Assembly (NCBI RefSeq): GCF_003268655.1
Contig: NZ_CP029642.1
Span: forward strand, 4,030,001-4,094,000
DNA length: 64,000 nt
Source of the DNA: Arthrobacter dokdonellae
GTDB lineage: Bacteria; Actinomycetota; Actinomycetes; Actinomycetales; Micrococcaceae
Reading direction: 5' to 3'
A model generated the notes under the pieces. That model saw nothing but the letters and a program-made list of their open reading frames with translations. It was not told the DNA's origin and did no database searches. The first letter of the stretch is position 1. The number at the start of each line of letters is the position of its first letter. Made by a program: the position numbers and the translations under genes. Shown here piece by piece: positions 13,469-44,518 of the stretch.

Positions 13469-13504
13469 GTTGGGTGACGGTTCATGGCCCGGTAGACTGT
13501 GCCT

Positions 13505-14812: not shown

Positions 14813-15297
14813 CGGCGTAACGGCCTGGCGACCCCAAGCGAAGGCCATGAGCCCGCAACCGAAGATAGTCGGCCCCTGAGGGTGGCTGCCGTCCGCTTGT
14901 CAACTTCCTGGGCTGCGCCTAATGTCGGCACGGGGTGTAGCCGGAGTCCATGCCTTTGACGCCGGCCCCGGCCGCTATGCACGGAACGAAACCGGTGTTG
15001 GGTTACCGGCGCATCCAACTGAAGTTAGGTCGGCCCAGTTTTAGGTCAAAGTTGGTGCCCGGATGCCGTGAACGATACCAGGTCATGGCACTTTTGGCAG
15101 CAAGTTCTGCGCAGCGCCTTCAGGGTGGCATGGAGAAAGGTCAAGCACCGCATGATGGTCGCCCTGGGCAAGAATCATCGCGAACACCCTGGACGCAAAC
15201 GCGAGAAAACAGTCAGAAACCCGCCAGACAAGCTCAGGATGGTTCCCGGAAACCCGGAGATGTTCCTGCCCCAACTTGCGTAAACTCACATTAAACG
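14813..15297. other. Intergenic region before the IS481 element
   Basis: Only short frames are present; a 71-codon GTG frame at 15068-15283 is rich in Lys and Arg but has no recognisable family. The last 15 bases are the left target duplication of the insertion sequence. Confidence 0.35.
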
Positions 15298-16892: not shown

Positions 16893-16900
16893 AACTCACA

Positions 16901-17896: not shown

Positions 17897-19449
17897 GGTC
17901 GCCGCCACGTCCTTCCGTCTCGCTTCAACAGGTCATCGGCCGAGCCCGGCCCCCAGCTGCCGGGCTCGTAGGCCTCGGGCTGGATGTTTTCAGCCGCCCA
18001 GAATTCCTCGAACGGGTCCAGGATCTTCCAGGACAGCTCCACCTCCTGGTGCCTCGGGAACAGCGGCGGCTCGCCCAGCAGGACGTCCAGGATCAGCCGC
18101 TCATAGGCCTCGGGGCTGGATTCGGTGAACGCGTGCCCGTAGCCAAAGTCCATCGTCACGTCGCGCACCTCCATCTGCGTCCCGGGGACCTTGGAGCCAA
18201 AGCGGATCGTGACGCCCTCGTCGGGCTGGACACGGATCACCACGGCGTTCTGGCCAAAGTCGTCCTCGGCGTGGTCGGTGAACAGCAGGTTGGGGGCCCG
18301 CTTGAAGACCACCGCGATCTCCGTCACGCGCCGGCCCAGCCGCTTGCCGGCCCGCAGGTAGAACGGCACCCCCGACCAGCGCCGGGTGTTGATGTCCAGC
18401 CGCACCGCCGCGTACGTCTCCGTCGTGGAGTCCGCCGGGATCCCGTCCTCCTGAAGGTAGCCGAGCACCTGCTCCCCGCCCTGCCACCCGCCGGCGAACT
18501 GGCCGCGCGCGGAATGGCCGGACAGATCCGCCGGCAGCTTCACGGCCGCGAGGACCTTTTCCTTCTCCGCGCGCAGGTCCTCGGCGTTGAAGGAGATGGG
18601 CTCCTCCATGGCCGTGAGCGCCAGCAGCTGCAGGAGATGGTTTTGGATGACGTCGCGGGCCGCGCCCACGCCGTCATAGTAACCGGCACGGCCCCCGGTG
18701 CCAATGTCCTCGGCCATGGTGATCTGCACATGGTCCACATAGTTCGCGTTCCACAACGGCTCAAAGAACTGGTTGGCGAAGCGCAGGGCCAGGATGTTCT
18801 GGACGGTTTCCTTGCCCAGGTAATGATCGATCCGGAACACCGCGTCCGGCGGGAACACCGATTCAACAATGTCATTGAGCGCCCTGGCCGAGGCGAGGTC
18901 GTGGCCAAACGGCTTCTCAATCACCACCCGGCGCCACTCGTCCGCCCCGCCCTGCGCCAGGCCGTGCCCGGAGAGCTGGCGGCACACCTGTTCAAAGGCC
19001 TTCGGCGGGATCGAGAGGTAGAACGCGTGGTTGCCCTGCGTGCCGCGCTGCTCATCGAGCTCGGCGAGCGTGGCCTTGAGCCGTTCAAACGCGGCATCGT
19101 CGTCGAAGGTGCCCTGCACGAAGCGGATGCCCTCGCTCAGCTGGCTCCAGACGGCCTCGTCAAACGGGGTGCGGCTGTGCGCCTGGACGGAGGCCCGGAC
19201 CTCCGCGGCGAAGTCCTCACGGTCCCAGTCGCGCCGGGCAAAGCCCACCAGCGCGAAGCTCGGCGGCAGCAGCCCCCGGTTGGCCAGGTCGTACACGGCC
19301 GGCATGAGCTTCTTGCGCGCCAGGTCCCCGGTCACCCCGAAGAGCACCAGCGACGACGGGCCCGCCACCCGGGACAGCCTGCGGTCGCGGCTGTCCCGAA
19401 GCGGATTCTGTCTGGCCTTCACGCGCGAATCAACGTATGTAACAGACAT
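17893..19449 (-). CDS. zwf: Glucose-6-phosphate dehydrogenase
   Basis: 518 residues. The coenzyme site LVLFGVTGDLARKKLMPAVY lies near residue 35, and the substrate and catalytic motif RIDHYLGKETVQNILALRF near residue 205, as in bacterial Zwf. It oxidises glucose 6-phosphate to 6-phosphogluconolactone with NAD(P). In a RuMP organism it opens the dissimilatory cycle, in which fructose 6-phosphate from formaldehyde is oxidised back to ribulose 5-phosphate with release of CO2. The partner gnd is not in the window. It is translationally coupled to opcA and lies 57 bases behind the 71-residue ORF. Confidence 0.96.
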   Translation of the reverse strand: MSVTYVDSRVKARQNPLRDSRDRRLSRVAGPSSLVLFGVTGDLARKKLMPAVYDLANRGLLPPSFALVGFARRDWDREDFAAEVRASVQAHSRTPFDEAVWSQLSEGIRFVQGTFDDDAAFERLKATLAELDEQRGTQGNHAFYLSIPPKAFEQVCRQLSGHGLAQGGADEWRRVVIEKPFGHDLASARALNDIVESVFPPDAVFRIDHYLGKETVQNILALRFANQFFEPLWNANYVDHVQITMAEDIGTGGRAGYYDGVGAARDVIQNHLLQLLALTAMEEPISFNAEDLRAEKEKVLAAVKLPADLSGHSARGQFAGGWQGGEQVLGYLQEDGIPADSTTETYAAVRLDINTRRWSGVPFYLRAGKRLGRRVTEIAVVFKRAPNLLFTDHAEDDFGQNAVVIRVQPDEGVTIRFGSKVPGTQMEVRDVTMDFGYGHAFTESSPEAYERLILDVLLGEPPLFPRHQEVELSWKILDPFEEFWAAENIQPEAYEPGSWGPGSADDLLKRDGRTWRRP

Positions 19450-20202: not shown

Positions 20203-20826
20203 CTAGCTGATGGCGGCGCGGAGCTGCTTGGCTGCCAGAGCGGGGTCTGCTGCGCCGTAGATGGCACCGCCGGCGACGGCGACATCGGCGCCGGCACTCT
20301 GGACGGCTTCGATGGTGCTGATGCTCACGCCACCGGCCACGGAGAACGGAACGCGGGCTTCTGCGCCGGCCTTGAGCAAACCGGTCAGGTCGAACCCGGG
20401 CTTGGCCTGCTCGTCCAGGCCAGCGTGCATCTCGACAAATTTCGCACCCAGCGCGCGAACTTCCTTGGCACGGGAGACCTTGTCTTCCACGCCGATGAGG
20501 TCCACGACGATGCCCTTGTTGTGTGCCTTCGCCGCCTTGACAGCGCCAGCGATGGTGGAGTCGTCCGCGCTGCCGAGCACGGTGACCAGGTCGGCGCCGG
20601 CCTTGAAGGCGATGTCGGCCTCAAGTTCTCCGGCGTCCATGGTCTTCATGTCAGCGAAGACGATCTTGTCCGGGTGCGCCTTCTTCACGGCTGTGACAGC
20701 GGAGAGGCCGGCTGCCTTGATCAGGGGGGTGCCGAGCTCGATGATGTCGACGTATTCGGCGACCTGGCCGGCCAGCTCGAGGGCAGCTTCAGTCGTGAGC
20801 AGGTCCATGGCTACTTGGAGTTTCAT
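20203..20826 (-). CDS. hps: 3-Hexulose-6-phosphate synthase
   Basis: 207 residues from the ATG at 20826, starting MKLQVAMDLLTTEAALELAG. The orotidine-decarboxylase-type barrel motifs are VDIIELGTPLI, FADMKTMDAGELEADIA (the DxKxxD catalytic triad) and VAGGVSISTI. It condenses formaldehyde with ribulose 5-phosphate to 3-hexulose 6-phosphate, the key assimilation and detoxification step of the RuMP pathway. It is 55 bases downstream of phi under the shared tkt-type promoter. This is the defining gene that makes the neighbouring sugar-phosphate genes a methylotrophy set. Confidence 0.95.
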   Translation of the reverse strand: MKLQVAMDLLTTEAALELAGQVAEYVDIIELGTPLIKAAGLSAVTAVKKAHPDKIVFADMKTMDAGELEADIAFKAGADLVTVLGSADDSTIAGAVKAAKAHNKGIVVDLIGVEDKVSRAKEVRALGAKFVEMHAGLDEQAKPGFDLTGLLKAGAEARVPFSVAGGVSISTIEAVQSAGADVAVAGGAIYGAADPALAAKQLRAAIS

Positions 20827-20881
20827 GATATTTGTACTTTCTGATAGGGAACTACAGTGGGTGTGGAAAATCGGGCCTCGG

Positions 20882-21481
20882 TTATTCGAGGTTGGCGTGC
20901 CTGAGCCAGAGCTCTTCAGCCGGTACATCGGTGCCGTCCCACAGGGACTGGAAAATTGCCTCAGTGGCGAGGAACAGGACCTGTTCGAAGAGGGACCCGG
21001 AGTACTGGCGCGAAACGCTGGAGCCGTGGTCGGTCTTTTGCGCCGCAGGAATGATCACCAGCGCGTCGGCGAGCCGGGCGAGCGGTGAGTCAGGGTTGGT
21101 GGTGAACGCGGCAATGCGCGCCCCAGCCTTCGCCGCGGTTTCCGCCGACTTGACCACACCGGAGGTCGTTCCCGATCCGGAGGCGACCAAAAGCAGGTCT
21201 CCGGAGCTGATTGCAGGAGTGGTTGTGTCACCGGCGACGTGAACCGTCATGCCTAGGTGCATCAGCCGCATGGCGGCCATGCGCAGAACCAGTCCGCTCC
21301 GGCCGGCCCCGGCGACGAACACCCGGCCTGTCTGGCTAAGGTGGCCTGCCAAGCCGGCCATCTCCCGTTCGTCGATTTTGCTCGCCGTTACCGTGATCTC
21401 GTCCCTGACAAGGGACAGATTACGGTCGATGTCACCTGCAGTTGTACGCACGGTACGCGTCGCTGTTGTTGTTGGATTCAC
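20882..21481 (-). CDS. phi: 6-Phospho-3-hexuloisomerase
   Basis: 199 residues from a GTG at 21481 with a GAAGGGACA ribosome site; the frame is open to 21562 but that DNA is leader. The SIS fold is evident: GRVFVAGAGRSGLVLRMAAM, MTVHVAGDTTTPAI and LLLVASGSGTTSGVV. It isomerises 3-hexulose 6-phosphate to fructose 6-phosphate. The N-terminal VNPTTTATR and the whole leader match those of tkt. Together with hps directly downstream it completes formaldehyde fixation. Confidence 0.95.
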   Translation of the reverse strand: MNPTTTATRTVRTTAGDIDRNLSLVRDEITVTASKIDEREMAGLAGHLSQTGRVFVAGAGRSGLVLRMAAMRLMHLGMTVHVAGDTTTPAISSGDLLLVASGSGTTSGVVKSAETAAKAGARIAAFTTNPDSPLARLADALVIIPAAQKTDHGSSVSRQYSGSLFEQVLFLATEAIFQSLWDGTDVPAEELWLRHANLE

Positions 21482-21610
21482 GATTTGTCCCTTCGATTCG
21501 GTCGTCGGCCTGTAGGGGCCGAGTGGATTGCTTTGTGGTTGGTATCCATCTTCTCGAAGCAAACGGGCAGGGGTAACACTGTTTTTTGACGGTTCTACCT
21601 ACACTTTAGG
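21482..21610 (-). promoter_or_regulatory. Promoter/leader of phi-hps, homologous to the tkt promoter
   Basis: Matches 13339-13468 base for base at many positions; the strongest block is 21562-21610. Both contain the imperfect palindrome CCTAAAGTGTAGG and a leader hairpin CGGCC-N6-GGCCG. The IS21 element begins about 155 bases upstream, leaving the conserved block intact. Confidence 0.7.
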
Positions 21611-32220: not shown

Positions 32221-32640
32221 TCATATTTCCTCGTATCGAAATGAATGCGACTCCAACCCTTCCGGATTGGGGCCGTAGATGGTGACCATCCGGGAGTAGA
32301 CGGGGGCCCAGTATCGACCTACTCCGCCAGGATTGACGCGCGCAGCATCGCCCGGCTTCAGGATCACAGTCTGGCCTTGGCTCTCGATATGGAGTTCGCC
32401 TTCCACCACGAAATTGGTCTCGCTATGCGGGTGAAAGTCTTCCCAGGCACAGGCCTCCAACTCCCACTCCGAGAGTATGAAGTCATCCCATGGGCCGATG
32501 GGGCGGGAATTTACGAACCGGCAGCGTAAACGTGGTCCCGCGATCTCCATCGGAGCCATACGCTCTCCTGGCCAGAAATCGATTGCCTTGCAGGTCGTCG
32601 GTGTCGGGCGGGACTGCTTCTGAGTGGTACTCGTGTTCAT
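32221..32640 (-). CDS. Cupin-domain protein (type A, copy 2)
   Basis: 139 residues from the ATG at 32640. Nearly the same C-terminal 100 residues as the protein at 1270-1680: FHPHSETNFVVEGELHIESQ, then KPGDAARVNPGG and a terminal RMVTIYGPNPEGLESHSF. The N-terminal 35 residues differ, as expected for an older duplication. It lies 246 bases downstream of the trimethylamine monooxygenase gene on the same strand, so it could be expressed with it. Retention of one copy beside tmm and another beside the BCCT transporter argues for a role in tertiary amine or amine-oxide metabolism rather than a general function. Confidence 0.8.
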   Translation of the reverse strand: MNTSTTQKQSRPTPTTCKAIDFWPGERMAPMEIAGPRLRCRFVNSRPIGPWDDFILSEWELEACAWEDFHPHSETNFVVEGELHIESQGQTVILKPGDAARVNPGGVGRYWAPVYSRMVTIYGPNPEGLESHSFRYEEI

Positions 32641-32886
32641 GGTTCCAACCGTTTCTTGAAAGACTGCGGAATAATGTCGGGCCGGGAGATTCTCTGGGGA
32701 GAACCGAAACCAGACGCCTTGGGCGACTGTTGTAGTGATGCGCGTAACTACGTGCAAGAATCAATGCACGATTTCTGCGATTATTTTGGAGTGAAAATCA
32801 ACAAGGTTCTTGCGTTGTGCGGATCCTCATTAACTCCAAGATTGTCGGCTGCATGGCCGACCAACCGTGGCCGATCTCACACACAC

Positions 32887-34278
32887 TTAGACATCTACGG
32901 CGACAGCGGCGGGCGTGCCGGTATCTACGTCCTGCGAAGAGCCGTGCAGGTAGCGTTCCAGGGAGTCATCCATGGCGTTGAGCCAACGCGTGTGGTGCTT
33001 GGTGGACACGGTGCCGGTGACGACCGAGCGGTGGACGGCGTCGCGGTAGCCGAGGATGTCCGTGTGCTTGTTGTGCATCCAGTCCTTGAATAACTGGGAA
33101 ACGGCATCCAGATCAAAAGCCGGGTAGTCGGTGGCGTTGATGAGCTCGCGTAAGTAGTCGGACTGGTAGTCGGCCTCGGAGTCGTGGTCCAACAGGGCGG
33201 CCAGGCGTTCGAGCCAGAGCTGGACGTCCGCATCGCGCTCGGCCAGGGATGGCAGGGCAATTTTGCCGGTCATGACGTCGCGCGCAAACCAGGCCTGCGC
33301 GTCAAACATGTTGAAGGTGTAGTACTGGTCCTGCGCCCCTAGGTAGAACAGATTCGTGTTCTGCTGCCACACCACGCCCTTGTAGAGGTTCGCAGGGTAC
33401 AGCACGTTCGGCGACCTAAGCGAGAGCTCGCTGGGCAGGAACGGGTACTTGTGCTGATATCCGGTGCACAGCACGACGACGTCAAACTCACCTTGGGTGC
33501 CGTCGCTAAAGTGCGCAATGCCGCCGTCAAAATGTGTGACGAGCGGGCGCTCCACCGTGTTCCAAGGCCAGTGATAGCCCATAGGTGCCGTGCGGTAGCT
33601 AAGGGTGATGGACGCGGCACCCATCTTGTGGGCCTGCATGCCAATGTCCTCGGCCGAATAGCTGCTGCCGATCATAAGCAGCCGCTTGCCGGCAAAGCGC
33701 TCAGCACCCCGGAAATCGTGGGCATGCAGCACCTCGCCCGGGAAGGTTTTAATGCCTTTGAACTCGGGGACTGCAGGGACGGAGAAATGGCCTGTGGCGA
33801 CAACGAGCTTGTCGAACACGTGCGTCTCAGTGAAGTTGGTTTTGAGGTTCTCAACCGTCACTGTGAATTCCTGCGTTTCCTCGTTGTAGCTGGTGTGGCG
33901 TGCCACGGTGTTGAAACGGACGTATTTTCGGACGTCCGACTTTTCCACGCGGCCCTTGATGTAGTCAAAGAGGACTTCGCGAGGCGGGAAAGAGGAGATG
34001 GGCCGGCCAAAGTGCTCGTCAAAGGAGTAATCCGAGAACTCCAGGCATTCCTTGGGCCCATTGGACCACAGATGCCGGTACATGCTGGAGTGGACGGGTT
34101 CGCCGTGGTTATCGAGGCCGATGCGCCAGGTGTTGTTCCATTGGCCGCCCCAGTCGTCCTGTTTTTCAAAACAGAGGATTTTGGGGATCGCGGCGCCTTT
34201 TTGGCGTGCCGATTCAAACGCCCGCAGTTGTGCCATGCCGCTAGGGCCTGCACCAATGATTCCGACTCGTAGGACCAT
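32887..34278 (-). CDS. tmm: Trimethylamine monooxygenase (flavin-containing monooxygenase)
   Basis: 463 residues from the ATG at 34278 (ribosome site AAAGGAGA); the frame is open farther to 34488. FAD site GIIGAGPSGMAQLRAFESA at the N-terminus, then DWGGQWNNTWR and PVHSSMYRHLWSNGPKECLE, FMO motif ATGHFSVPAVPEFKG, NADPH site MIGSSYSAEDIG, and FNMFDAQAWFARDV. These segments match the Methylophaga/marine Tmm sequence I remember much more closely than general FMOs. It oxidises trimethylamine to the N-oxide with NADPH and O2. It is downstream of the amine oxidase and permease genes, behind a hairpin. Substrate specificity is inferred from sequence resemblance. Confidence 0.88.
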   Translation of the reverse strand: MVLRVGIIGAGPSGMAQLRAFESARQKGAAIPKILCFEKQDDWGGQWNNTWRIGLDNHGEPVHSSMYRHLWSNGPKECLEFSDYSFDEHFGRPISSFPPREVLFDYIKGRVEKSDVRKYVRFNTVARHTSYNEETQEFTVTVENLKTNFTETHVFDKLVVATGHFSVPAVPEFKGIKTFPGEVLHAHDFRGAERFAGKRLLMIGSSYSAEDIGMQAHKMGAASITLSYRTAPMGYHWPWNTVERPLVTHFDGGIAHFSDGTQGEFDVVVLCTGYQHKYPFLPSELSLRSPNVLYPANLYKGVVWQQNTNLFYLGAQDQYYTFNMFDAQAWFARDVMTGKIALPSLAERDADVQLWLERLAALLDHDSEADYQSDYLRELINATDYPAFDLDAVSQLFKDWMHNKHTDILGYRDAVHRSVVTGTVSTKHHTRWLNAMDDSLERYLHGSSQDVDTGTPAAVAVDV

Positions 34279-34560
34279 GGTTCTCTCCTTTTGCATTGAA
34301 TCTTTTGAGGTTGTTATTGTGCAACGTTCTGGGTGAGCATCATTGGCCACGCCGGCAGCCTCCGTTGATGCCTTTTGCAATTGCGGCTGATGCCTTGGTA
34401 TTCGCCCCTGTCTGCCAGGAACAAAATGGCCCGCTGCGTGGGAAAAAGCGTTGTGCTGAACTTCCGCACCAAAAACCCGCACACACATTCACATTTGCTC
34501 GGGCCCCACAATGCTCACGGTGGAACTGGAACGGGCAGGGCGGGTGCGTGGACTCAATGT

Positions 34561-34599
34561 CAGGAGGGCAGACAGTTTCTCGCTCGGTCTGCCCTCCTG
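34561..34599 (-). terminator. 13-bp hairpin between the permease and tmm genes
   Basis: CAGGAGGGCAGAC pairs perfectly with GTCTGCCCTCCTG over a 13-base loop, 12 bases after the permease stop. No T-tract follows on the minus strand. It probably separates the amine oxidase-permease transcript from tmm. Confidence 0.65.
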
Positions 34600-34610
34600 T
34601 GATTGCGAGA

Positions 34611-36188
34611 TTAGCTCATTGCAGGGACGCCTTGCTCGTCTTCTTCAGCATCCGCCAAGATGTCCAAATCAACTGTGGAATGTTCCTTCAGCACACCCGT
34701 GTGGTGCCTGATACGCAGCCGGTAGAGCAAGATACCGACGACTACGACGAAGACGACGAAGATAACCCCGCCCCACTGCAGGTACCACTCGAACGGGGCC
34801 ACTGAGTTGTAGATCGCCTGACGAGGCCAGATCAGGTTGACGGTCATTGCCGCTCCCCACACGACAGCAATGAGATTGACGATGAAGCCCCACTTACCCA
34901 GGCTGAACCCTGTCTCCGTCTCATCGTCAACCAGTGGCCACCTCTTCCGGAACCTACTAAGGAGCATCGGAAAGGTAACCAGCAAATAGGCCATGTAGAT
35001 CAGGACGATTCCAATGGTGGAAACAATCGTAAAGATGGCGGGCTGGCCGATATTGACCAGCAGCGGAATGAGGGCGAGAACGCCAATGGTGATGGCAGCC
35101 ACCGTGGGGGTCTTGCGAACCGGGTGCACTCTCGCAAGCTGGCGGCTAAACGGCAAGTTGTTGTCCCGCGCCATGGCGAACATCATGCGGATGGCCGCAG
35201 CATGGATGGCGAGTGCGCAGACAGTGATTGCAATCACGACGCAGACCAGGAAGGCCTTGCCAAAGGGTCCGCCAAGAATCGACAGGACGAGGTACTGCAT
35301 GCCTCCGTCTGCTTGCCCGAGCTTGGGGTCGGACAGGTTCGGGGCAGCCATGAGAGCAGTGAGGAGCACTGCCCCACCCAGGATGAAGGATGCCGTTACG
35401 GCCCTAATGATTGCCCTCGGCGCGGTTTTCTTCGGGTTCATGGTTTCTTCACCGAGGGAACTGGCGGTGTCGAAACCGTACATGGCATAACCAGAAGCCA
35501 TGGATGCGACAAGGAACGCGCCGAAGTATCCAAGGGCTTGGCCATGACCCGTTCCAAGGGTGTTGAAAACAACCCCGGGCCCACGGTGCGCGTGGAATGC
35601 CAGAGCAAGTACCAGGAACACAGCCGCGAAGAGTTCCACAAACACGCCGATGCTGTTGATCTTCGTCAATAGCTTGACACCAAACGCATTCACGAGAGTG
35701 GTAAATATGATCAGGAGTGTTGCAAGCACGACACCGTTGAGCGCGAAATCGTAGGTGCCGGTTCCGTCACCTACCATCTGGAAGCCGGTCCAGATCTGCG
35801 GCAGCGTAATCTGAAGAGACAATGCGACAGCACCGACTGTCACGATCGAGGCGACCAACAGCAGCCAACCTGCCATCCATGACGACGTTTTCGAGGCAAG
35901 CTGCTTGGCCCAGTTGTATACAGCGCCAGCGACCGGATACCGGCCCGCGAGCTCGGCAAAACAGAGCGCGACCATCAATTGACCGACGAATACCAGGACC
36001 CAGGTCCACCAATAGGCTGGCCCTCCGGTACCGAAGCCAAAGTAGAAAAGCTGAAAAACACTCGTGAGGATGGAAATATAGCTGACGCCGGCCGCGAAGC
36101 TCGCGAATTTACCGATACTCCGGTCAAGCGACTGCGTGTAGCCAAAGTGGTCAAGCCCGCTTGTGTCGTGTTTTGGTGGGTGTGACAT
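34611..36188 (-). CDS. APC-superfamily amine/amino-acid permease
   Basis: 525 residues from the ATG at 36188, with about 12-13 hydrophobic segments. APC landmarks: FAAGVSYISILTSVFQLFYF in TM1, AELAGRYPVAGAVYNWAKQL, YAMYGFDTASSLGEETMNPK in TM6, and PRAIIRAVTASFILGG. It resembles the GABA/choline/amine permease branch (Uga4/Hnm1-like). It lies 44 bases downstream of amine oxidase copy 1, so the pair forms an operon, and the natural inference is uptake of methylamine or another primary amine oxidised by that enzyme. The substrate is not visible in the sequence. Confidence 0.85.
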   Translation of the reverse strand: MSHPPKHDTSGLDHFGYTQSLDRSIGKFASFAAGVSYISILTSVFQLFYFGFGTGGPAYWWTWVLVFVGQLMVALCFAELAGRYPVAGAVYNWAKQLASKTSSWMAGWLLLVASIVTVGAVALSLQITLPQIWTGFQMVGDGTGTYDFALNGVVLATLLIIFTTLVNAFGVKLLTKINSIGVFVELFAAVFLVLALAFHAHRGPGVVFNTLGTGHGQALGYFGAFLVASMASGYAMYGFDTASSLGEETMNPKKTAPRAIIRAVTASFILGGAVLLTALMAAPNLSDPKLGQADGGMQYLVLSILGGPFGKAFLVCVVIAITVCALAIHAAAIRMMFAMARDNNLPFSRQLARVHPVRKTPTVAAITIGVLALIPLLVNIGQPAIFTIVSTIGIVLIYMAYLLVTFPMLLSRFRKRWPLVDDETETGFSLGKWGFIVNLIAVVWGAAMTVNLIWPRQAIYNSVAPFEWYLQWGGVIFVVFVVVVGILLYRLRIRHHTGVLKEHSTVDLDILADAEEDEQGVPAMS

Positions 36189-36232
36189 GTGAGAGTCCTT
36201 CTCTTTTGTTTTCCCTGGGGTGCTGGGCCGGT

Positions 36233-38170
36233 TCATTGTTCGTGCCCGTTGCAGCAGTGTGTGGTGGTGGTGGTTTGCTGTGTGGGGAGGTTGAGGGTGG
36301 GGTTTTGGTTGAAGAAGCCGTGGGGTTCGAGCGTGAAGCCGATGTTTTGGCGGGGCATGACGGGCCAGTCTTCGAGGCGGACGACGTGGTGCATGCCGAA
36401 GGTGTACCAGACCACGAGGTCTTTATCGACGATGTTCCGGTCGGCTTGGGTCCAGGCGGGCAGGCCGTCGTCGGCGCCGGTGCTTTGGTTGGGGAATTCC
36501 CCGGCGGCGAAGCGTTCGGTGCGGTCGTAGGCGGTGACCCAGAGGTTGTTGCGGGCGAACTGGGCGCGCTGGCTGACGTAGGACTGGTCGCCGGCGGCCA
36601 GGGTGATGGCGTTGGTGGGGATGAGGCGGTACGCTACGGGTTCGTCCACGATGTTCGTGCTGTCGTGGTTGACGATCTTCCAGAAGCGGTGCTTGGATGC
36701 GTCGGCCTTGCGGATGGCTGCTTGTTCGGTTTCCAGGAGCCGGTCCACGGCCTTGAAGGCGGTGTGGGTGGGGTTGTTCTCGGGGATTTCCATGTCGACT
36801 TCGTAGACGGCGTTGCGTGGCCCGTCGATTTCAAAGTCCATGCGGACGTTGAACATGTGCTGGTGGATGGGTCCGTAGAGTCCGTCGTTGTTTAGGGCCT
36901 GCCCGTACGGGGTCTTCTCGCCGGGGTGCTGGGCGGCGGTGGAGAGGATGCCGGTGGCCTTGACGAGGAACTCGATGCTCCCGTCGAGGTAGAGGTGCCA
37001 GTAGAAGGCGTATTCGTAGTTGGCGACGGTGGCGATGAAGGAGATCACGAGCTTGCGGGAGCGTCGGACTTCGGCGGTGCCTTCGCGGAAGTCGAAGTGC
37101 TTCCACATGATGCTGTCGTCTTCTTCATGCATGCAGATGGCGTTTTCGATGGTCATCGGGTTGCCGTGGCTGTCGGTGGTGATGCCGTCGAAGTACTTGA
37201 TCTCGCCCAGGCAGTCGCAGCCGAGCTTGAGGGAGTTGGCCATGTTGCCGATGTTGTATTCACCGGAGTCGAAGGCGTTCTTCTTTGCCTGCACCGGTGC
37301 GGGGTCGCCGTAGGGGACGACCATTTCCGAGAGGGAGGCCCTGTTGATCACGGGCCGTTCCACGCCCTGGTCGCGGAACCGCAGCTGGTGAAGGACGAGG
37401 CCTTCGCGGGGGGTGAAGCCGACACGGAAGGACCAGTCGGCCCACTGGACGTGGTTGCCGGTGACCTTGAAGGAAGCGCCTTCGGGCTGGGTGATGGAAA
37501 TGGGTTTGAGGTCCGTGCGGGCCGGGCCGACGTACTCGGGCAGGTAGTTCCCGCTGGCACGCGGCACGGGGATGGACTCGTTGTCCTCGACCTTGACAAC
37601 CTCCCCGGAGCTGAGGTCGTAGAAGACAACGAAGTTCTCGATCGGGTGTGCGTAGGGGCTGTCGGTGGGATTCTCGCGGACGAAGACCAGGGCGCGCATC
37701 AGGCGCCGGCCCTGGGCGTCTTCGCCGAAGTAGCCCACGGACCACGGCTCAAAGCAGACCAGACCCAGATTGGTCAGGCCCCGGGCGGCCAGGGCCGCGA
37801 TGACGTCCCGGTCCTTCCGACAGGCTTCCTCGCACTCGGCAAACTCATCCAGCATAAAGGGCGGCTGAACGCCTGAAGCCAGCTGCGTCCACCCCGACAC
37901 GATGCCGGAGTCAAGGTCGACCACGGCCGCGTATGCATTTCCCGTGCCCCGGTCCACCAGGACGGCGTCGGCCTCACGGACCGTTGCACTGCCGGCCCGC
38001 AACAATTCCTTGGCCGGCTCACGCAACTCAACGCTGATGAAACGGAACGACTCCGCCGCGGCCTGGCCCTCCTTCAAGATCGAAACCGCCCGGGAAATCT
38101 CAGCCCGCGACAACGGATCCAGGGGGTGCGAAACGCCTACTACGGTGTGGGCTTCAGTACTGACAGACAT
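36233..38170 (-). CDS. maox: Copper/TPQ primary amine oxidase, copy 1 (methylamine oxidase)
   Basis: 645 residues. The catalytic base segment NAFDSGEYNIGNMANSLKLG, the cofactor Tyr in VANYEYAFYWHLYLDG (Tyr 385, modified to topaquinone), the copper His pair in IHQHMFNVRMD and the third copper region WYTFGMHHVVRLEDWPVMP are all present. It oxidises a primary amine with O2 to aldehyde, ammonia and H2O2; in this context methylamine to formaldehyde is expected. Copy 2 at 42587 is almost identical apart from a different C-terminal tail (CCNGHEQ here). Arthrobacter P1 is known to carry two such genes, maoxI and maoxII. No signal peptide is seen, so it is cytoplasmic. Confidence 0.95.
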   Translation of the reverse strand: MSVSTEAHTVVGVSHPLDPLSRAEISRAVSILKEGQAAAESFRFISVELREPAKELLRAGSATVREADAVLVDRGTGNAYAAVVDLDSGIVSGWTQLASGVQPPFMLDEFAECEEACRKDRDVIAALAARGLTNLGLVCFEPWSVGYFGEDAQGRRLMRALVFVRENPTDSPYAHPIENFVVFYDLSSGEVVKVEDNESIPVPRASGNYLPEYVGPARTDLKPISITQPEGASFKVTGNHVQWADWSFRVGFTPREGLVLHQLRFRDQGVERPVINRASLSEMVVPYGDPAPVQAKKNAFDSGEYNIGNMANSLKLGCDCLGEIKYFDGITTDSHGNPMTIENAICMHEEDDSIMWKHFDFREGTAEVRRSRKLVISFIATVANYEYAFYWHLYLDGSIEFLVKATGILSTAAQHPGEKTPYGQALNNDGLYGPIHQHMFNVRMDFEIDGPRNAVYEVDMEIPENNPTHTAFKAVDRLLETEQAAIRKADASKHRFWKIVNHDSTNIVDEPVAYRLIPTNAITLAAGDQSYVSQRAQFARNNLWVTAYDRTERFAAGEFPNQSTGADDGLPAWTQADRNIVDKDLVVWYTFGMHHVVRLEDWPVMPRQNIGFTLEPHGFFNQNPTLNLPTQQTTTTTHCCNGHEQ

Positions 38171-38215
38171 GCTATTCTCCTTGATTCTTAATACAGGACG
38201 ATTCTGGGATCAAAC
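38171..38215 (-). repeat. Duplicated leader of the amine oxidase genes
   Basis: About 30 bases before the start codon, ending AATCAAGGAGAATAGC, are identical to 42555-42586 before copy 2. The duplication boundary lies at CGTCCTGTATTAAG; upstream of it the sequences are unrelated, so the two copies have different promoters. Confidence 0.7.
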
Positions 38216-38333
38216 CGGGAGCTACCTGACCCTGCATCCGGGGTCGGCCTCCCAGTAGCCAACCGACAGGGCCCTGGTCTACCGGCAGTGAACCAGCATC
38301 TCGACGTGGTTCCCACGTCAAAGATCCTTGGAT

Positions 38334-38370
38334 TGTCAGAACTGTTCGTCTTTGTCAGAACTGTTCATTT
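38334..38370 (-). promoter_or_regulatory. Tandem TGTCAGAACTGTTC elements upstream of amine oxidase copy 1
   Basis: TGTCAGAACTGTTC occurs twice on the plus strand, at 38334 and 38353, 19 bases apart (about two helical turns). The complement of the second is 19/20 identical to 2167-2186 ahead of the EutQ-like cupin. This is a likely activator or repressor binding array for the methylamine operon. Confidence 0.6.
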
Positions 38371-39632
38371 TTGGGTGGATGTATGGCCGCGCCGACAAAC
38401 CCGACGTCCTCTATTTGTGAAAGGCCAACCGGGCTCCGCGCCGGTACTGCTGACGTGATGCCGGTCACCTACGTTCTATCCCCACAGCAAAAGTACGCTT
38501 CAAAATCTAGTTAGTCGATATGTTTAAGGAATAAATCTTTCCAGAAGGCGGTTAAACTTCCCCAGGCAGCTTGAACCTCCCGCAACAGGGGTAGGCAGCC
38601 ACTACGGTCCCGGGCGTCGGTTCACGACTTCCTACTACCCAGTAGTGCGTGCGCCGCCCACTACGTTCCTTGCTTCCCAGGGATCCGCTGGTTCTGCACA
38701 TAGGCGACCGGGACGCCCCAATGATCCCTGAAATTCAAGCGCCATTACCGGTCCGGGACACGCTGCCTCTGGGGTAGGGACACGCGGCCTCTGCGGTCCG
38801 CGCGCGAATGCTTTGACCGAGAGCCTCGGCCAAGTCCCGGCCCCACGCAGCCCTTCTTCAAAGTCTTTTGGCCAGGCACTACAGAGGCGGCGTGTCTTCC
38901 CGGATCCTGAATGAACCTCAGACTTCGGAGATTCCCTTCTTTTGTATTCATCCCAAGTTCCGCGGGGCTTGGCGGCGAGAAGCAGGGTCCGACTGGCAAT
39001 ACTTGGTCGTCGACAGCCGAGGTCACTCGTGCCGAGAGTCTTCGGCTTTGCATCGGGTACTGGGCCCTAGTCCGGGCACGGCTGACACCTGATTTCCTCG
39101 GCGAAGATGCTCGCAACGATCATGATCGATTCCCGAGGTGATGGCGCCGAGTGCGGACCTCAGGGCCCGATCGCAGGACATTTACACGTCGTCGTCAAGC
39201 CCTTTCGGCGCTGTCCCCGACACCAGAAGAAGGACCGGGGCGCGCTGGCTAGGCAGCGCACCTGACAAAAACGATGGCTCACAACATGAAGAGACCGGGA
39301 AGGCACCACCCGGTGTCAACACACGCGATTGTGGCCAAGTTTCCGACGGGCAGGCGCCCCGCCTGCGAGCTTACCGTAACGAACCCATCGCCAGGGCGGC
39401 ACCGGAAACAACCGAAGAGACGAAAATATTCAATGCTAAAAAGGACTGGACTAGATGAATTAAGAGGCGTAGCTTTACATTCAGGAAGGAACTAACGTGA
39501 TCGGCATCACGCCCGTGGAGTTCGGAGCAGATCTTCGCTGACCCTCCATCCAATGGAGGACGTCTGGTTTGCAAGCGGTCCCTTTCTGAGCCCCGACCGG
39601 GGTACTACCAACACTATCCATAGGAGAAAACC
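38371..39632. other. 1.26-kb intergenic region between divergent amine operons
   Basis: No credible gene is seen on either strand. It contains small palindromes (CTACTACCCAGTAG near 38632 and GTGAT-CGGC-ATCAC near 39498) and the divergent promoters for amine oxidase copy 1 and the cupin-dmm operon. Confidence 0.45.
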
Positions 39633-40013
39633 ATGGAAACCACCACAATCGGAACTCTGATCAAGGCCGGGTCCATTCACAAGGTTGAAGGCGGATATCT
39701 TGGGCTGCCCTCGATGAACGAGACGGGAGTTGAAGCCGCCATCGGCGACTCCCTGCACAACCCGGAGGGCTCGGTCATGAGCGCCGGTTTCTTCGAACTG
39801 AAGGCCTCCGAGCCCCTGGTCTACACATACACGTACGACGAAATGAAGGTCGTTGTCCAAGGCGAATTCATCCTCACCGACCAAGACACAGGGGAAACCA
39901 CGCACGCCAAGGAACGCGATGTGCTGTTCTTCCCCAAGGGAACAACAGTGAAGTTCGAAACCCCCGACTACGCACTCGGGTTCTTCACCGGCCACCGCTC
40001 CTTCGCACCCTAA
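39633..40013 (+). CDS. EutQ-like cupin (type C, copy 2)
   Basis: 126 residues, ATG with a TAGGAGAAAA ribosome site. Same length as, and most residues identical to, the protein at 2227-2607; shared segments include GSIHKVEGGY, EMKVVVQGEF (EMKVVIKGEF in copy 1) and KERDVLFFPKGTT. It is the first gene of the plus-strand run cupin-dmmA-like-dmmB-N-demethylase-amine oxidase, only eight bases before the dmmA-like ORF. That tight linkage, and the presence of a dmmB fossil after copy 1, shows that the cupin and the dimethylamine demethylase travel together. It may be an accessory subunit, a metal or cofactor chaperone, or a catalytic partner. Confidence 0.82.
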   Translation: METTTIGTLIKAGSIHKVEGGYLGLPSMNETGVEAAIGDSLHNPEGSVMSAGFFELKASEPLVYTYTYDEMKVVVQGEFILTDQDTGETTHAKERDVLFFPKGTTVKFETPDYALGFFTGHRSFAP

Positions 40014-40021
40014 GACGCACC

Positions 40022-40510
40022 ATGCATTCCGTATCCATGACTGCGATGGAACGCGCATACTGTGATCCAGGTTTCCGTGGACTCATCTGCGTGTCGTTTG
40101 GTAAAGCTGACTCCCTCACTGCGGACTACTACAACGGTGGCCAGCGTCGGCATGTCATTCACTTCGACGATGCAAACACGGAAACCCTTTCGCATCTGAG
40201 GTCCACAATCGAGCTGGCCTGCGTGGGCGTCCGTCTCGTCCTCATAGGGCCACTGGTCGACATTCAGGCGGCTGCCGCCGTGGCTGCGGAATGCGGCCTG
40301 GTCGAAGAGGAAGTGACGCTCGTGGGGGACCGATCCGACCATCTTAGGGTCTTCTGCGCACATTGTCGCGCCGTGACAAGGACCGTTGAGCCGATCGGTT
40401 CTGAATTCGAGTGTCAAGGATGCACCACTGTCCTGTCGATCTCTAACCATTTTTCCCGGCGCATCGCTGCATACCTGGGATTCTCCGCACATGCCGAGGA
40501 GGCAGCATGA
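40022..40510 (+). CDS. DmmA-like small subunit of the dimethylamine oxidative demethylase
   Basis: 162 residues. The C-terminal part has two Cys pairs, FCAHC and FECQGC, 18 residues apart, looking like a zinc ribbon or a cluster site. The N-terminal 110 residues form an alpha/beta domain with LVLIGPLVDIQAAAAVAAEC and a conserved HFDDAN. Position between the cupin and the ferredoxin reductase, with a four-base ATGA overlap to the latter, fits the small subunit of the dimethylamine monooxygenase (Dmm/HODM) complex. I use the name DmmA from memory of family labels and am unsure of the exact subunit letter. It should be cytoplasmic. Confidence 0.65.
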   Translation: MHSVSMTAMERAYCDPGFRGLICVSFGKADSLTADYYNGGQRRHVIHFDDANTETLSHLRSTIELACVGVRLVLIGPLVDIQAAAAVAAECGLVEEEVTLVGDRSDHLRVFCAHCRAVTRTVEPIGSEFECQGCTTVLSISNHFSRRIAAYLGFSAHAEEAA

Positions 40511-41484
40511 CAGCGACAGCAGTCCAGGCCAAGGTCCACCCTGCGGTCAAGGGCGGACTTGAGCTTGAGGTCACGGGCGTCAGTCCCCAGACGGACGCGA
40601 TTACCAGCATTACTTTTGTTGATCCATCGGGGGCCGCACTGCCTTCCTACGTGCCGGGGAGCCACCTTGTGGTCCAATGCGGGACTGGCGCCAACGCGTA
40701 CTCACTCACCGGATCGGGCACCGCCCCGTCCGAATACACCATCTCGGTTCTTCAGGTCGAAGACGGTGCTGGCGGCTCAAGGGCCATGCACCGGCTCAGC
40801 GTCGGAGACCGCGTGCATGCGGCCCGTCCTCGCAGCGCCTTTGCACCCACCTCCAATGCCACCCATTTTCTCCTGGTTGCGGCAGGGATCGGCATCACCC
40901 CGGTGCTTTCACACGCCCGGTCCGCTGCCGAATGGGGCACGGCAGCGGACCTGATCTACGTGCACCGGCCGGGGGCGGGGGCCCACGTTGCCGAAGCACG
41001 GGAATTGCTCGGACCCGCCTTGACCGAATGCGGCGACCGGGCCAGTTTCCAGAAGGTCTTGGCCGAAAAGCTCACGACCCAGCCACTGGGCACCCATCTC
41101 TACGTCTGCGGGCCGCTGGCCTTCATGGATGCAGTCCTGGACCAGGCCCGGGAGCAGGGATGGTCGACGGCCCGGCTGCATTCAGAAGCGTTTGGCGCCG
41201 CCGAGCTGGACGCGGGCGAACCCTTCACCGTGACCCTGGCCCGCAGCGGCACCCGCTTGGACGTGCCGGCCGGCGTTTCCCTGCTGGAAACCCTAGAAAG
41301 CGCGGGCAAAAGCATTCCCAACATGTGCCGCAAGGGCATCTGCGGGGAATGCGCCATCCCGGTCCTTCGCGGGACACCCCAGCACCGGGACCTCTACCTG
41401 AACGATCAGGAAAAGGCCGAGAACACCACCATGATGTGCTGCGTTTCACGCAGCCAGGATGAAGAATTGGAGTTGGACCTTTGA
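40507..41484 (+). CDS. dmmB: Ferredoxin-reductase subunit of the dimethylamine oxidative demethylase
   Basis: 325 residues with a phthalate-dioxygenase-reductase-type order: flavin domain (SYVPGSHLVVQ, NAYSLTG), NAD(P)H domain (LLVAAGIGITPVLSHAR, YVCGPLAFMD), then a C-terminal plant-type 2Fe-2S ferredoxin (MCRKGICGECAIPVLRG and TTMMCC). It passes electrons from NAD(P)H to the heme subunit. Its stop codon overlaps the TTG start of the next gene (TTGA), so the two are translationally coupled. The 3' end of this gene is also found, decayed, at 2835-2998 in front of the BCCT gene. Confidence 0.88.
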   Translation: MTATAVQAKVHPAVKGGLELEVTGVSPQTDAITSITFVDPSGAALPSYVPGSHLVVQCGTGANAYSLTGSGTAPSEYTISVLQVEDGAGGSRAMHRLSVGDRVHAARPRSAFAPTSNATHFLLVAAGIGITPVLSHARSAAEWGTAADLIYVHRPGAGAHVAEARELLGPALTECGDRASFQKVLAEKLTTQPLGTHLYVCGPLAFMDAVLDQAREQGWSTARLHSEAFGAAELDAGEPFTVTLARSGTRLDVPAGVSLLETLESAGKSIPNMCRKGICGECAIPVLRGTPQHRDLYLNDQEKAENTTMMCCVSRSQDEELELDL

Positions 41485-42482
41485 GCACCATCATCACCGA
41501 CAAAGACCTGGACACCGCCGTCCTGCCGGAACGGATCCGACGCTTCCCCTTCCCCTTTTCCGCTGACAGCTACCGCTACAGCGCCAATGTGGAACCCGCC
41601 CATAAAACAGTCCCGACCGAGGTCGGCTCCTGGGGATCCTTCCTGATCGACATCGACGAACACTACCTCTCCGAGCTCCAGGAACGAGAGGAAATCCTGA
41701 ACAAGGACCCCTCACGCACAGCAGTCCTGCCCCACATGCGATCCGCCGTCTGGGACGCCATCACCACCCTGCTGCCCATCATGGCCGAAGAATACCCGCA
41801 CGCGATGTCCTACCACCGAGAGGGCAACGCCTGCCGCTGGACAAACACCCTTCAGAACCTGGAACTGGAATTCACCATCGGCGACGACGATTCCCTCCCC
41901 ATGGGGCCCCTACGCTTCCTCGGCAGTCAAATCCAGGACGACCTCGTTTTCCTCGACCCCCGTGAAGACACCCTGTGGCTGGACGCAGGCCTTGTCACCT
42001 TCGCCGCCGACTGGTCCTTCGGATTCGACGTGGGCATGAAGTTCATGGAAGTGCACACCCCCGTTCCCCGTGTCCAAACAGAACCCGTCATCAACCGGGC
42101 CCATCAATTCCTCCTCCGGCTACAACCCGGGGAAGAATTCCGCCGGACCAACTGGACAATGACCATAGGCCAGCGCCTGGACACCTCCACCGAAACCTAC
42201 CCGCAATGGGGACCAGACCGCGGCACCATCGCCGACGACCCAGACCTGCCAAGCAAGCTCCACCTGCGAGTGGAAGTACAACACATGCTCTGCCTCCCAC
42301 ACTCCGGAGCCGTCCTTTTCCTCATCCGGTCCTACCTGCTCCCCCTAACCGACATCGCCCAAGTACCCCCCTGGCGCGAACGCCTCGGCCACGTCCTCGC
42401 CGAACTCCCCGAAGACATGGCCGACTACAAAGGCATCACCCGCTACCGCAACGCCGCATCAAACTGGCTGCTAAACGTCTAA
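41481..42482 (+). CDS. Heme-dependent oxidative N-demethylase subunit (DUF3445)
   Basis: 333 residues from the TTG at 41481. Typical DUF3445/HODM alpha-subunit segments: FPFPFSADSYRYSANVEP, DPSRTAVLPHMRSAVWDAIT, WLDAGLVTFAADWSFGFDVG, PVINRAHQFLLRLQPGEEFR and HLRVEVQHMLCLPHSGAVLF. The family is a PAS-like heme enzyme that demethylates dimethylamine to methylamine and formaldehyde using O2 and electrons from the reductase. It is followed at 104 bases by amine oxidase copy 2, which would take the methylamine. The first codons resemble those of the BCCT gene, discussed with the fossil junction. Confidence 0.88.
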   Translation: MSTIITDKDLDTAVLPERIRRFPFPFSADSYRYSANVEPAHKTVPTEVGSWGSFLIDIDEHYLSELQEREEILNKDPSRTAVLPHMRSAVWDAITTLLPIMAEEYPHAMSYHREGNACRWTNTLQNLELEFTIGDDDSLPMGPLRFLGSQIQDDLVFLDPREDTLWLDAGLVTFAADWSFGFDVGMKFMEVHTPVPRVQTEPVINRAHQFLLRLQPGEEFRRTNWTMTIGQRLDTSTETYPQWGPDRGTIADDPDLPSKLHLRVEVQHMLCLPHSGAVLFLIRSYLLPLTDIAQVPPWRERLGHVLAELPEDMADYKGITRYRNAASNWLLNV

Positions 42483-42586
42483 TAGTCGGCGAAGTCACCC
42501 GTCTCCCGTTCCACTCGTCACACGTAACACCTCATTTTCAAAACCACATGGTCCCTCGTCCTGTATTAAGAATCAAGGAGAATAGC

Positions 42587-44518
42587 ATGTCTGTCAGTAC
42601 TGAAGCCCACACCGTTGTAGGCGTTTCGCACCCTTTGGATCCGTTGTCGCGGGCTGAGATTTCCCGGGCGGTGTCGATCTTGAAGGATGGCCAGGCCGCG
42701 GCGGAGTCGTTCCGTTTCATCAGCGTTGAGTTGCGTGAGCCGGCGAAGGAATTGTTGCGGGCCGGCAGTGCAACGGTCCGTGAGGCCGACGCCGTCCTGG
42801 TTGACCGTGGCACGGGAAATGCATACGCGGCCGTGGTCGACCTTGACTCCGGCATCGTGTCGGGGTGGACGCAGCTGGCTTCAGGCGTTCAGCCGCCCTT
42901 TATGCTGGATGAGTTTGCCGAGTGCGAGGAAGCCTGTCGGAAGGACCGGGACGTCATCGCGGCCCTGGCCGCCCGGGGCCTGACCAATCTGGGTCTGGTC
43001 TGCTTTGAGCCGTGGTCCGTGGGCTACTTCGGCGAAGACGCCCAGGGCCGGCGCCTGATGCGCGCCCTGGTCTTCGTCCGCGAGAATCCCACCGACAGCC
43101 CCTATGCGCACCCGATCGAGAACTTCGTTGTCTTCTACGACCTCAGCTCCGGGGAGGTTGTCAAGGTCGAGGACAACGAGTCCATCCCCGTGCCGCGTGC
43201 CAGCGGGAACTACCTGCCCGAGTACGTCGGCCCGGCCCGCACGGACCTCAAACCCATTTCCATCACCCAGCCCGAAGGCGCTTCCTTCAAGGTCACCGGC
43301 AACCACGTCCAGTGGGCCGACTGGTCCTTCCGTGTCGGCTTCACCCCCCGCGAAGGCCTCGTCCTTCACCAGCTGCGGTTCCGCGACCAGGGCGTGGAAC
43401 GGCCCGTGATCAACAGGGCCTCCCTCTCGGAAATGGTCGTCCCCTACGGCGACCCCGCACCGGTGCAGGCAAAGAAGAACGCCTTCGACTCCGGTGAATA
43501 CAACATCGGCAACATGGCCAACTCCCTCAAGCTCGGCTGCGACTGCCTGGGCGAGATCAAGTACTTCGACGGCATCACCACCGACAGCCACGGCAACCCG
43601 ATGACCATCGAAAACGCCATCTGCATGCATGAAGAAGACGACAGCATCATGTGGAAGCACTTCGACTTCCGCGAAGGCACCGCCGAAGTCCGACGCTCCC
43701 GCAAGCTCGTGATCTCCTTCATCGCCACCGTCGCCAACTACGAATACGCCTTCTACTGGCACCTCTACCTCGACGGGAGCATCGAGTTCCTCGTCAAGGC
43801 CACCGGCATCCTCTCCACCGCCGCCCAGCACCCCGGCGAGAAGACCCCGTACGGGCAGGCCCTAAACAACGACGGACTCTACGGACCCATCCACCAGCAC
43901 ATGTTCAACGTCCGCATGGACTTTGAAATCGACGGGCCACGCAACGCCGTCTACGAAGTCGACATGGAAATCCCCGAGAACAACCCCACCCACACCGCCT
44001 TCAAGGCCGTGGACCGGCTCCTGGAAACCGAACAAGCAGCTATCCGCAAGGCCGACGCATCCAAGCACCGCTTCTGGAAGATCGTCAACCACGACAGCAC
44101 GAACATCGTGGACGAACCCGTAGCGTACCGCCTCATCCCCACCAACGCCATCACCCTGGCCGCCGGCGACCAGTCCTACGTCAGCCAGCGCGCCCAGTTC
44201 GCCCGCAACAACCTCTGGGTCACCGCCTACGACCGCACCGAACGCTTCGCCGCCGGGGAATTCCCCAACCAAAGCACCGGCGCCGACGACGGCCTGCCCG
44301 CCTGGACCCAAGCCGACCGGAACATCGTCGATAAAGACCTCGTGGTCTGGTACACCTTCGGCATGCACCACGTCGTCCGCCTCGAAGACTGGCCCGTCAT
44401 GCCCCGCCAAAACATCGGCTTCACGCTCGAACCCCACGGCTTCTTCAACCAAAACCCCACCCTCAACCTCCCCACACAGCAAACCACCACCACCACGCAC
44501 TGCTGCAACGAGAACTAA
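42587..44518 (+). CDS. maox: Copper/TPQ primary amine oxidase, copy 2 (methylamine oxidase)
   Basis: 643 residues with the same active site as copy 1: FDSGEY base, topaquinone Tyr 385 in VANYEYAF, HQH copper pair and third copper region MHHVVRLEDWP. The C-terminus is CCNEN instead of CCNGHEQ. In a hand comparison of the first 600 coding bases, differences fall in the first 240 (about eight) and near base 520 (two). One further change was noted near base 1,450, and the rest I checked is identical, suggesting gene conversion. It is the last enzyme of the plus-strand dimethylamine operon, giving formaldehyde, ammonia and H2O2. No catalase gene is present nearby. Confidence 0.95.
   Translation: MSVSTEAHTVVGVSHPLDPLSRAEISRAVSILKDGQAAAESFRFISVELREPAKELLRAGSATVREADAVLVDRGTGNAYAAVVDLDSGIVSGWTQLASGVQPPFMLDEFAECEEACRKDRDVIAALAARGLTNLGLVCFEPWSVGYFGEDAQGRRLMRALVFVRENPTDSPYAHPIENFVVFYDLSSGEVVKVEDNESIPVPRASGNYLPEYVGPARTDLKPISITQPEGASFKVTGNHVQWADWSFRVGFTPREGLVLHQLRFRDQGVERPVINRASLSEMVVPYGDPAPVQAKKNAFDSGEYNIGNMANSLKLGCDCLGEIKYFDGITTDSHGNPMTIENAICMHEEDDSIMWKHFDFREGTAEVRRSRKLVISFIATVANYEYAFYWHLYLDGSIEFLVKATGILSTAAQHPGEKTPYGQALNNDGLYGPIHQHMFNVRMDFEIDGPRNAVYEVDMEIPENNPTHTAFKAVDRLLETEQAAIRKADASKHRFWKIVNHDSTNIVDEPVAYRLIPTNAITLAAGDQSYVSQRAQFARNNLWVTAYDRTERFAAGEFPNQSTGADDGLPAWTQADRNIVDKDLVVWYTFGMHHVVRLEDWPVMPRQNIGFTLEPHGFFNQNPTLNLPTQQTTTTTHCCNEN

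What the first reader, a model, noticed from the sequence alone, without database searches (positions are those of the whole stretch)
32221..44518. Trimethylamine-to-formaldehyde route with the TMAO demethylation step missing
Tmm, a Dmm/HODM-type dimethylamine demethylase and two methylamine oxidases are all present, and the formaldehyde sink (hps, phi) lies in the same window. No Tdm-like (DUF1989 plus GcvT domain) TMAO demethylase is visible. Five small cupins of two duplicated types plus one single type lie inside these operons, without a known reaction. One of them may provide the missing metal-dependent TMAO step.
Basis: partly seen in the sequence, partly recalled or inferred. Interest (0 to 1): 0.75.

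Follow-up and report, generated by a model that had tools for sequence, protein, structure and literature searches.

The report
Methylamine island without known TMAO demethylase
This soil actinobacterium has genes to break down tri-, di- and monomethylamine but lacks the known enzyme for one step in between; of its small cupin proteins one type belongs with the dimethylamine enzyme instead, and another is an unproven candidate for the missing step.

Summary
In detail: Tmm, an HODM-type DmmABC, two near-identical copper amine oxidases, hps/phi and five small cupins (A twice, B twice, C once; three of them at 1225-2607, outside the stated range). Tdm is absent from the complete genome: no DUF1989 match; the Tdm model finds only GcvT halves there but passes in 5 of 34 genomes.

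The gap and the cupins were published in 2015 (PMC5023230), with a ferredoxin/flavodoxin gene proposed as the demethylase. By gene order that gene is DmmB, part of the dimethylamine enzyme (inference), so the gap is open again.

CupA tracks dmmABC, not tmm. Of 80 tmm+ genomes, all 17 with cupA have HODM, and none of the 56 without HODM has cupA. CupA-dmmABC occurs in eight genomes without Tmm and beside a true Tdm genome-wide in G428. CupA has no conserved His and usually holds the place of dmmD; most likely it is a Dmm accessory.

CupB has an invariant HxHxE site and sits beside tmm in 12 of 13 island relatives. It is the one tmm-side cupin left as candidate for the TMAO step, unproven (0.17).

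The parts
32221..32757 (-). CupB, tmm-side cupin; start likely at 32640 (139 aa)
   Evidence: Cupin_2/Cupin_3 over cut-off; HxHxE invariant in 31 rows
32887..34488 (-). Tmm, trimethylamine monooxygenase; start likely at 34278
   Evidence: NF058570 733 bits, cut-off 675; solved Tmm 6kbw at 1.6e-194
34611..36236 (-). APC-type permease
   Evidence: PF13520 155 bits
36233..38170 (-). copper amine oxidase, copy 1
   Evidence: PF01179; NF008559 918 bits, cut-off 651
39633..40013 (+). CupA, EutQ-like cupin leading the dmm operon
   Evidence: PF06249 38 bits, cut-off 21; 12 bp before dmmA match
40022..40510 (+). DmmA-like subunit
   Evidence: PF22289, NF041259
40507..41484 (+). DmmB-like reductase subunit
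   Evidence: PF22290, Fer2
41481..42482 (+). DmmC, HODM haem subunit
   Evidence: PF11927 220 bits; 5lte
42587..44518 (+). copper amine oxidase, copy 2
   Evidence: 99.8% identical to copy 1
1225..1680 (+). CupB', second copy
   Evidence: 81% identity over residues 57-178 of the CupB frame
1755..2117 (+). CupC, single cupin
   Evidence: PF05899 75 bits
2227..2607 (+). CupA', second copy
   Evidence: 78% identity to CupA
2916..3020 (+). remnant of the dmmB end / dmmC start
   Evidence: 80% identity to 41399-41508, E 3e-23
2981..5044 (+). BetT-type BCCT transporter (open frame from 2513)
   Evidence: NF007399 767 bits, cut-off 695
5423..6067 (+). TetR regulator, kin of the one beside cupB/tmm elsewhere
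   Evidence: PF00440; cluster of 34 members in 33 loci
6156..19449 (-). sugar-phosphate genes: fba, pfk, rpiB, rpe, tal, tkt, opcA, zwf, with a transposase between
20203..21562 (-). hps and phi, formaldehyde fixation
   Evidence: TIGR03128 and TIGR03127 over cut-off

Best explanation
The window is an actinobacterial methylated-amine island shaped by operon duplication and deletion, in a genome without Tdm. Tmm should turn TMA into TMAO, DmmABC (HODM) DMA into MMA and formaldehyde, copper amine oxidase MMA into formaldehyde, and hps/phi fix it (inferred from family membership). The cupins are different things. CupA is a dmm-operon gene that mostly holds the place of dmmD (GcvT, tetrahydrofolate) in other bacteria; most likely it is a histidine-free accessory of the HODM demethylase, for formaldehyde or carbinolamine hand-over or for assembly (role inferred), not the TMAO demethylase. 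Its copies beside tmm and betT go back to duplicated cupA-dmmABC operons that lost dmm genes (remnants shown). CupB is a separate tmm-side cupin with a possible metal site and unknown reaction. The TMAO step has no assigned gene.
For: Tdm absent: PF09347 none; NF053776 only over the GcvT half, 237 bits against 1100, while 5 of 34 genomes pass. CupA with dmm: 17 of 17 cupA+ genomes among 80 tmm+ have HODM over cut-off, 0 of 56 without it have cupA; 19 of 21 cupA+ genomes have it within 1 kb of dmm genes on the same strand; 6 of 22 class-wide dmm neighbourhoods have cupA, and five of those six genomes lack Tmm; cupA at 51% identity before dmmABC on a Mycobacterium plasmid. dmmD place: G443, G519, G954; dmmD and cupA rows lie on opposite sides of a 100/100 branch. 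Remnants.
Against: 15 of 22 class-wide dmm neighbourhoods have neither cupA nor dmmD (3 of them cut by contig ends), so CupA is not essential to HODM as such. Only three dmmD operons were seen. In G603, G582 and G613 cupA follows dmmC, so the dmmD place is not constant. The tmm-side cupA copies are under the same purifying selection as the dmm-side ones (median dN/dS 0.097 and 0.098), so they may also serve Tmm; gene conversion could mask this. No activity was tested.
Confidence: 0.62

Rival explanations
1. CupB is the missing enzyme: a small metal cupin that cleaves TMAO to DMA and formaldehyde at a metal held by H70, H72 and E74, unrelated to Tdm.
Against: Three genomes carry strong cupB matches not beside tmm, in ABC transporter/aldehyde dehydrogenase/aminotransferase clusters; distant kin lie in ordinary contexts; G603 and G639 have tmm-cupA but neither cupB nor Tdm.
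Confidence: 0.17
2. The TMAO step is done by something else: an unlinked unrecognised gene, Dmm itself acting on TMAO or TMA, or iron- and thiol-driven breakdown in the cell.
For: No gene conserved beside tmm other than cupins, TetR and permeases was seen in the island loci; the dmm and tmm genes stand in one string in G492. Iron-driven TMAO breakdown is recalled chemistry, not from a call.
Against: Known pathway genes elsewhere lie together (PMC4543880, passages); in proteobacteria dmm mutants accumulate DMA from TMAO, so Dmm is not needed for that step there (PMC5520151, passages).
Confidence: 0.38
3. There is no TMAO step: TMAO is stored or excreted, and the island feeds on DMA and MMA only.
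For: In 35 of 38 tmm neighbourhoods fetched in the family, chosen mostly from cupA-negative genomes, none of the island genes stands within five genes of tmm. Myroides profundi stores TMAO made from TMA (PMC11708041, passages).
Against: Here tmm shares an island with dmm, mao and RuMP genes, and cupA-dmm-tmm-cupB occurs as one string in G492.
Confidence: 0.18
4. CupA is the TMAO demethylase or an obligate partner of Tmm.
For: cupA lies directly before tmm in many islands and in G603 and G639; tmm-side copies are under purifying selection.
Against: Absent from 63 of 80 tmm+ genomes; bound to HODM; in eight genomes without Tmm; coexists with Tdm in G428; no conserved His.
Confidence: 0.05

Closest known systems
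Methylotrophy islands of Arthrobacter 31Y, 35W, MA-N2 and Mycobacterium 141, 155 (PMC5023230; sections 3.1, 3.3.1, 3.4 and passages read)
   Same: Tmo, two near-identical Mao, EutQ cupins beside Tmo and Mao, RuMP genes, no Tdm near Tmo
   Different: They name a ferredoxin/flavodoxin gene as Tmd and take Tmo to act on DMA too; here that gene is DmmB of an HODM enzyme by gene order, and the cupins are split into CupA (dmm) and CupB (tmm)
Proteobacterial TMA pathway tmm-tdm-dmmDABC (PMC4543880, PMC5520151; passages read)
   Same: Tmm, DmmABC
   Different: No Tdm, no dmmD in the operon; CupA mostly in the dmmD place; amine oxidase and RuMP instead of N-methylglutamate and folate routes
EutQ (2pyt, 4axo)
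   Same: CupA and CupB profiles match its cupin domain
   Different: CupA covers profile positions 67-139 of 152 only and stands in amine operons
Small metal cupin lyases (hydroxynitrile lyase 4bif, DMSP lyase DddK 6a55)
   Different: 14% identity; many other cupins tie; metal and reaction of CupB untested

Membership tests
TMAO demethylase Tdm | DUF1989 domain plus GcvT domain in one protein (NF053776) | tested here: not met
   No DUF1989 in the genome; NF053776 237 bits over the GcvT half, cut-off 1100
TMAO demethylase Tdm | cleaves TMAO to DMA and formaldehyde | not testable with these tools
   needs an assay of the cupins
HODM dimethylamine monooxygenase | haem PAS alpha subunit | tested here: met
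   PF11927; 5lte over residues 15-330
HODM dimethylamine monooxygenase | reductase and DmmA-like subunits in the operon | tested here: met
HODM dimethylamine monooxygenase | GcvT subunit DmmD in the operon (proteobacterial form) | tested here: not met
   Operon read in full; GCV_T genome hits all lie outside the window
Trimethylamine monooxygenase | NF058570 equivalog score | tested here: met
   733 bits, cut-off 675
EutQ (CupA) | EutQ cupin domain | tested here: met
   PF06249 38 bits, cut-off 21
EutQ (CupA) | ethanolamine operon context | tested here: not met
   CupA stands in dmm, tmm and betT contexts
Metal cupin enzyme (CupB) | conserved metal-ligand residues | tested here: met
   H70, H72, E74 invariant; that they bind metal is inferred
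Metal cupin enzyme (CupA) | conserved histidine ligands | tested here: not met
   no His among positions conserved in 93% or more of 30 rows

The most novel reading that the evidence does not exclude
CupB is a second, unrelated TMAO demethylase: a 139-aa metal cupin lyase in place of the roughly 800-aa Tdm in RuMP actinobacteria, while CupA stands in for the GcvT subunit DmmD of the haem N-demethylase. Two small cupins would then replace the two GcvT-containing proteins of the proteobacterial pathway.
Probability: 0.12. Interest if true: 0.82.

Novelty: new variant of a known kind. Interest (0 to 1): 0.52.

Why it matters
TMA and TMAO turnover is tracked through tmm and tdm, and bacteria with this island would be misread. 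The 2015 candidate for their TMAO demethylase looks like the reductase of the dimethylamine enzyme, so a step thought to have a candidate has none. Splitting the cupins gives two testable proteins: CupA as a partner of the haem demethylase, mostly in the dmmD place, and CupB as the tmm-side cupin with a possible metal site.

Tried and rejected
Rejected: Tdm hidden elsewhere in the genome. L001 is gcvT by its equivalog model; the 868-aa frame L002 has a GcvT half behind an oxidase half; L003 was not scanned with NCBIfam (GCV_T match in a 1024-aa frame). Disfavoured: CupA as TMAO demethylase (see rivals). Not supported: the BCCT gene as TMA or TMAO importer; it is BetT-like, solved choline transporter 549 bits, TmaT 320 bits. 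Considered: a 283-341-aa protein beside cupA in G603, G639 and G582; no Pfam match for the G639 copy, no match in the window below E 0.4.

Led nowhere: the phylum-wide NF058570 search gave mostly distant FMOs, 3 of 396 over cut-off. Fold comparisons show ordinary cupin folds with many ties. The CupA model is middling (pLDDT 76.7; CupB 84.7). Foldseek against PDB could not be run on its own.

Caveats: genomes of one family are not independent, and the Fisher values (3.4e-12 for cupA with HODM, 1.8e-12 for cupB with Tmm of 87% or more) ignore that. In one search the label 'none' for L229 is an artefact of an insertion between cupA and dmmC. Of the 15 class-wide dmm neighbourhoods with neither gene, L331, L333 and L341 end at contig ends, and L331 and L333 group with the dmmD rows. 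Statements on what is not in print rest in an open-licence library; besides PMC5023230, one search listed two papers seen as listing only.
Full report
What is there. The window is G000:C1:4030001-4094000 of a 4.53-Mb genome in 2 contigs, completeness 100. Family scans confirm Tmm, an APC permease and a first copper amine oxidase on the minus strand; CupA, DmmA, DmmB, DmmC and a second copper amine oxidase on the plus strand; hps, phi and RuMP sugar-phosphate genes; and at the left end CupB', CupC, CupA' and a BetT-type transporter. The oxidases are 99.8% identical; CupA and CupA' 78%, CupB and CupB' 81%.

The missing step is real. DUF1989 has no match in the genome while 2 of 14 control genomes ring. 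GCV_T has five matches, the best being gcvT by its equivalog model. The Tdm equivalog NF053776, met by scanning a Tdm found here, was searched in 34 chosen genomes: 5 pass (G428, G454, G496, G513, G954); the own genome reaches 237 bits over the GcvT half. The 13 relatives with Tmm of at least 87% identity do not pass either.

Prior art. PMC5023230 (2015; sections 3.1, 3.3.1 and 3.4 read, passages) describes the same in Arthrobacter and Mycobacterium: Tmo, near-identical Mao copies, EutQ cupins near both, no demethylase near Tmo. It offers a ferredoxin/flavodoxin gene as Tmd and supposes that Tmo also oxidises dimethylamine. For strain 35W its table gives EutQ 3581, Tmd 3579, Mao 3577. Genome G625, two of whose contig lengths equal those of 35W, reads cupA-dmmA-dmmB-dmmC-mao. 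So that Tmd is by gene order DmmB, reductase of an HODM-type enzyme (inference).

CupA goes with dmm. Of 395 genomes drawn from the family 82 have Tmm at E<=1e-100. 80 of these were tested (handle limit; G000 and G720 left out): DUF1989 in 18, of which four have a 796-799-aa Tdm frame and the rest are not Tdm or were not scored with NF053776; cupA in 17, G658 only as fragments at or near contig ends; HODM over cut-off in 24. All 17 fall in the 24. In the same 395 genomes 21 have cupA, and 4 of these are not among the 82: G582 holds a broken tmm, G449, G759 and G780 none. In 19 of the 21 a cupA copy lies within 1 kb of dmm genes on the same strand; exceptions are G450 (only remnants, dmmC at a contig end) and G639 (cupA before tmm, dmmC about 9 kb away). 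In 384 genomes of the class 40 have HODM. 32 neighbourhoods were fetched (own genome and 7 others not): 22 hold dmmB and dmmC, 6 with cupA, 1 with dmmD, 15 with neither, none with both. Five of the six cupA genomes have no Tmm-level match, best 58 bits. A plasmid of Candidatus Mycobacterium methanotrophicum has cupA (51%) then dmmABC.

CupA and the dmmD place. In marine proteobacteria dmmD, a GcvT protein, is co-located with dmmABC and thought to capture formaldehyde (PMC4543880, PMC5520151, passages). G443, G519 and G954 here have dmmD before dmmABC and no cupA there. In a tree of 55 dmmC rows the three dmmD rows lie on one side of a branch with 100/100 support and all rows labelled cupA on the other. 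With three dmmD operons and many with neither, exclusion is a hint, not a proof. Over 30 divergent rows CupA has no conserved histidine; E55, Y64, K72 and G77 are invariant.

How the copies arose. G492 has cupA-dmmA-(insertion)-dmmB-dmmC-tmm-cupB (L229). Other loci keep dmm scraps between cupA and tmm (L279, L202) or before betT (L262, L268, L269, L272, L273, L274, L288), as does this window at 2916-3020, where the transporter's first residues align with the start of dmmC. The copies are not decaying: median dN/dS 0.097 beside tmm (10 sequences), 0.098 beside dmm (11), 0.118 beside betT (6). Copies inside one genome can score alike (G625, G657), so gene conversion may blur this.

CupB. H70, H72, E74 and Y110 are invariant in 31 relatives and in 50 rows. 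CupB is in 18 of the 80 genomes, two weakly: the 13 with Tmm of at least 87%, beside tmm in 12 (G658 is the exception), and G499, G545, G550, where it lies around an ABC transporter, aldehyde dehydrogenase and aminotransferase. A scan of genome contigs gave 67 loci, 25 with tmm; these were found through cupB and do not prove linkage. Distant kin lie in ordinary contexts. G603 and G639 have tmm-cupA but neither cupB nor Tdm, which speaks against CupB as a general solution.

Plasmid control. In 72,556 plasmid records Tmm matches 139 (E<=1e-80), Tdm covers at least 80% of the query in 127, cupA matches 1 and cupB 1. Most Tmm records are Rhizobium and Acinetobacter, so not independent. Which records hold both Tmm and Tdm was not counted.

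Verdict. Shown: the parts, the absence of Tdm, CupA's partnership with dmm, the remnants. Inferred: the reactions, CupA's accessory role, the identity of the published Tmd with DmmB. Open: which protein, if any, turns TMAO into DMA.

Noticed in passing
window 36237-38201 and 42556-44520: The two amine oxidase genes form a 1965-bp inverted repeat at 99.2% identity; recombination between them would invert the cupA-dmmABC segment.
   Followed up: no
window 15332-16760, 21867-24352, 28798-31080, 53653-54981: Transposase, IstA/IstB-like and integrase genes lie between the amine and RuMP blocks, in line with a mobile or rebuilt island.
   Followed up: no
window 24831-27135 and 48672-50168: A GntR/FCD regulator followed by a Cache-domain protein, and a second locus where both domains are in one frame; a similar pair stands beside a cupB relative on Gordonia plasmid pGKT2.
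   Followed up: partly
L169:11264-12289, L170:10951-11802, L259:8605-9185: Protein of about 283 aa without Pfam match beside cupA-tmm in three genomes of one genus; split in L259.
   Followed up: partly
L258, L324, L334, L344: Two dmmABC sets in tandem behind one cupA, in genomes without Tmm; in three of them gmaS/mgs-like genes stand nearby in the stretch compared (L324, L334; a partial gmaS in L344).
   Followed up: no
L163-L201 (tmm loci): In many Micrococcaceae relatives tmm stands without any amine-island gene within five genes (35 of 38 loci looked at), so what Tmm does there is open.
   Followed up: no
window 63337-63969: A frame matching only the C-terminal domain of glycine dehydrogenase (GcvP2_C); it runs near the window's end and was not extended.
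   Followed up: no
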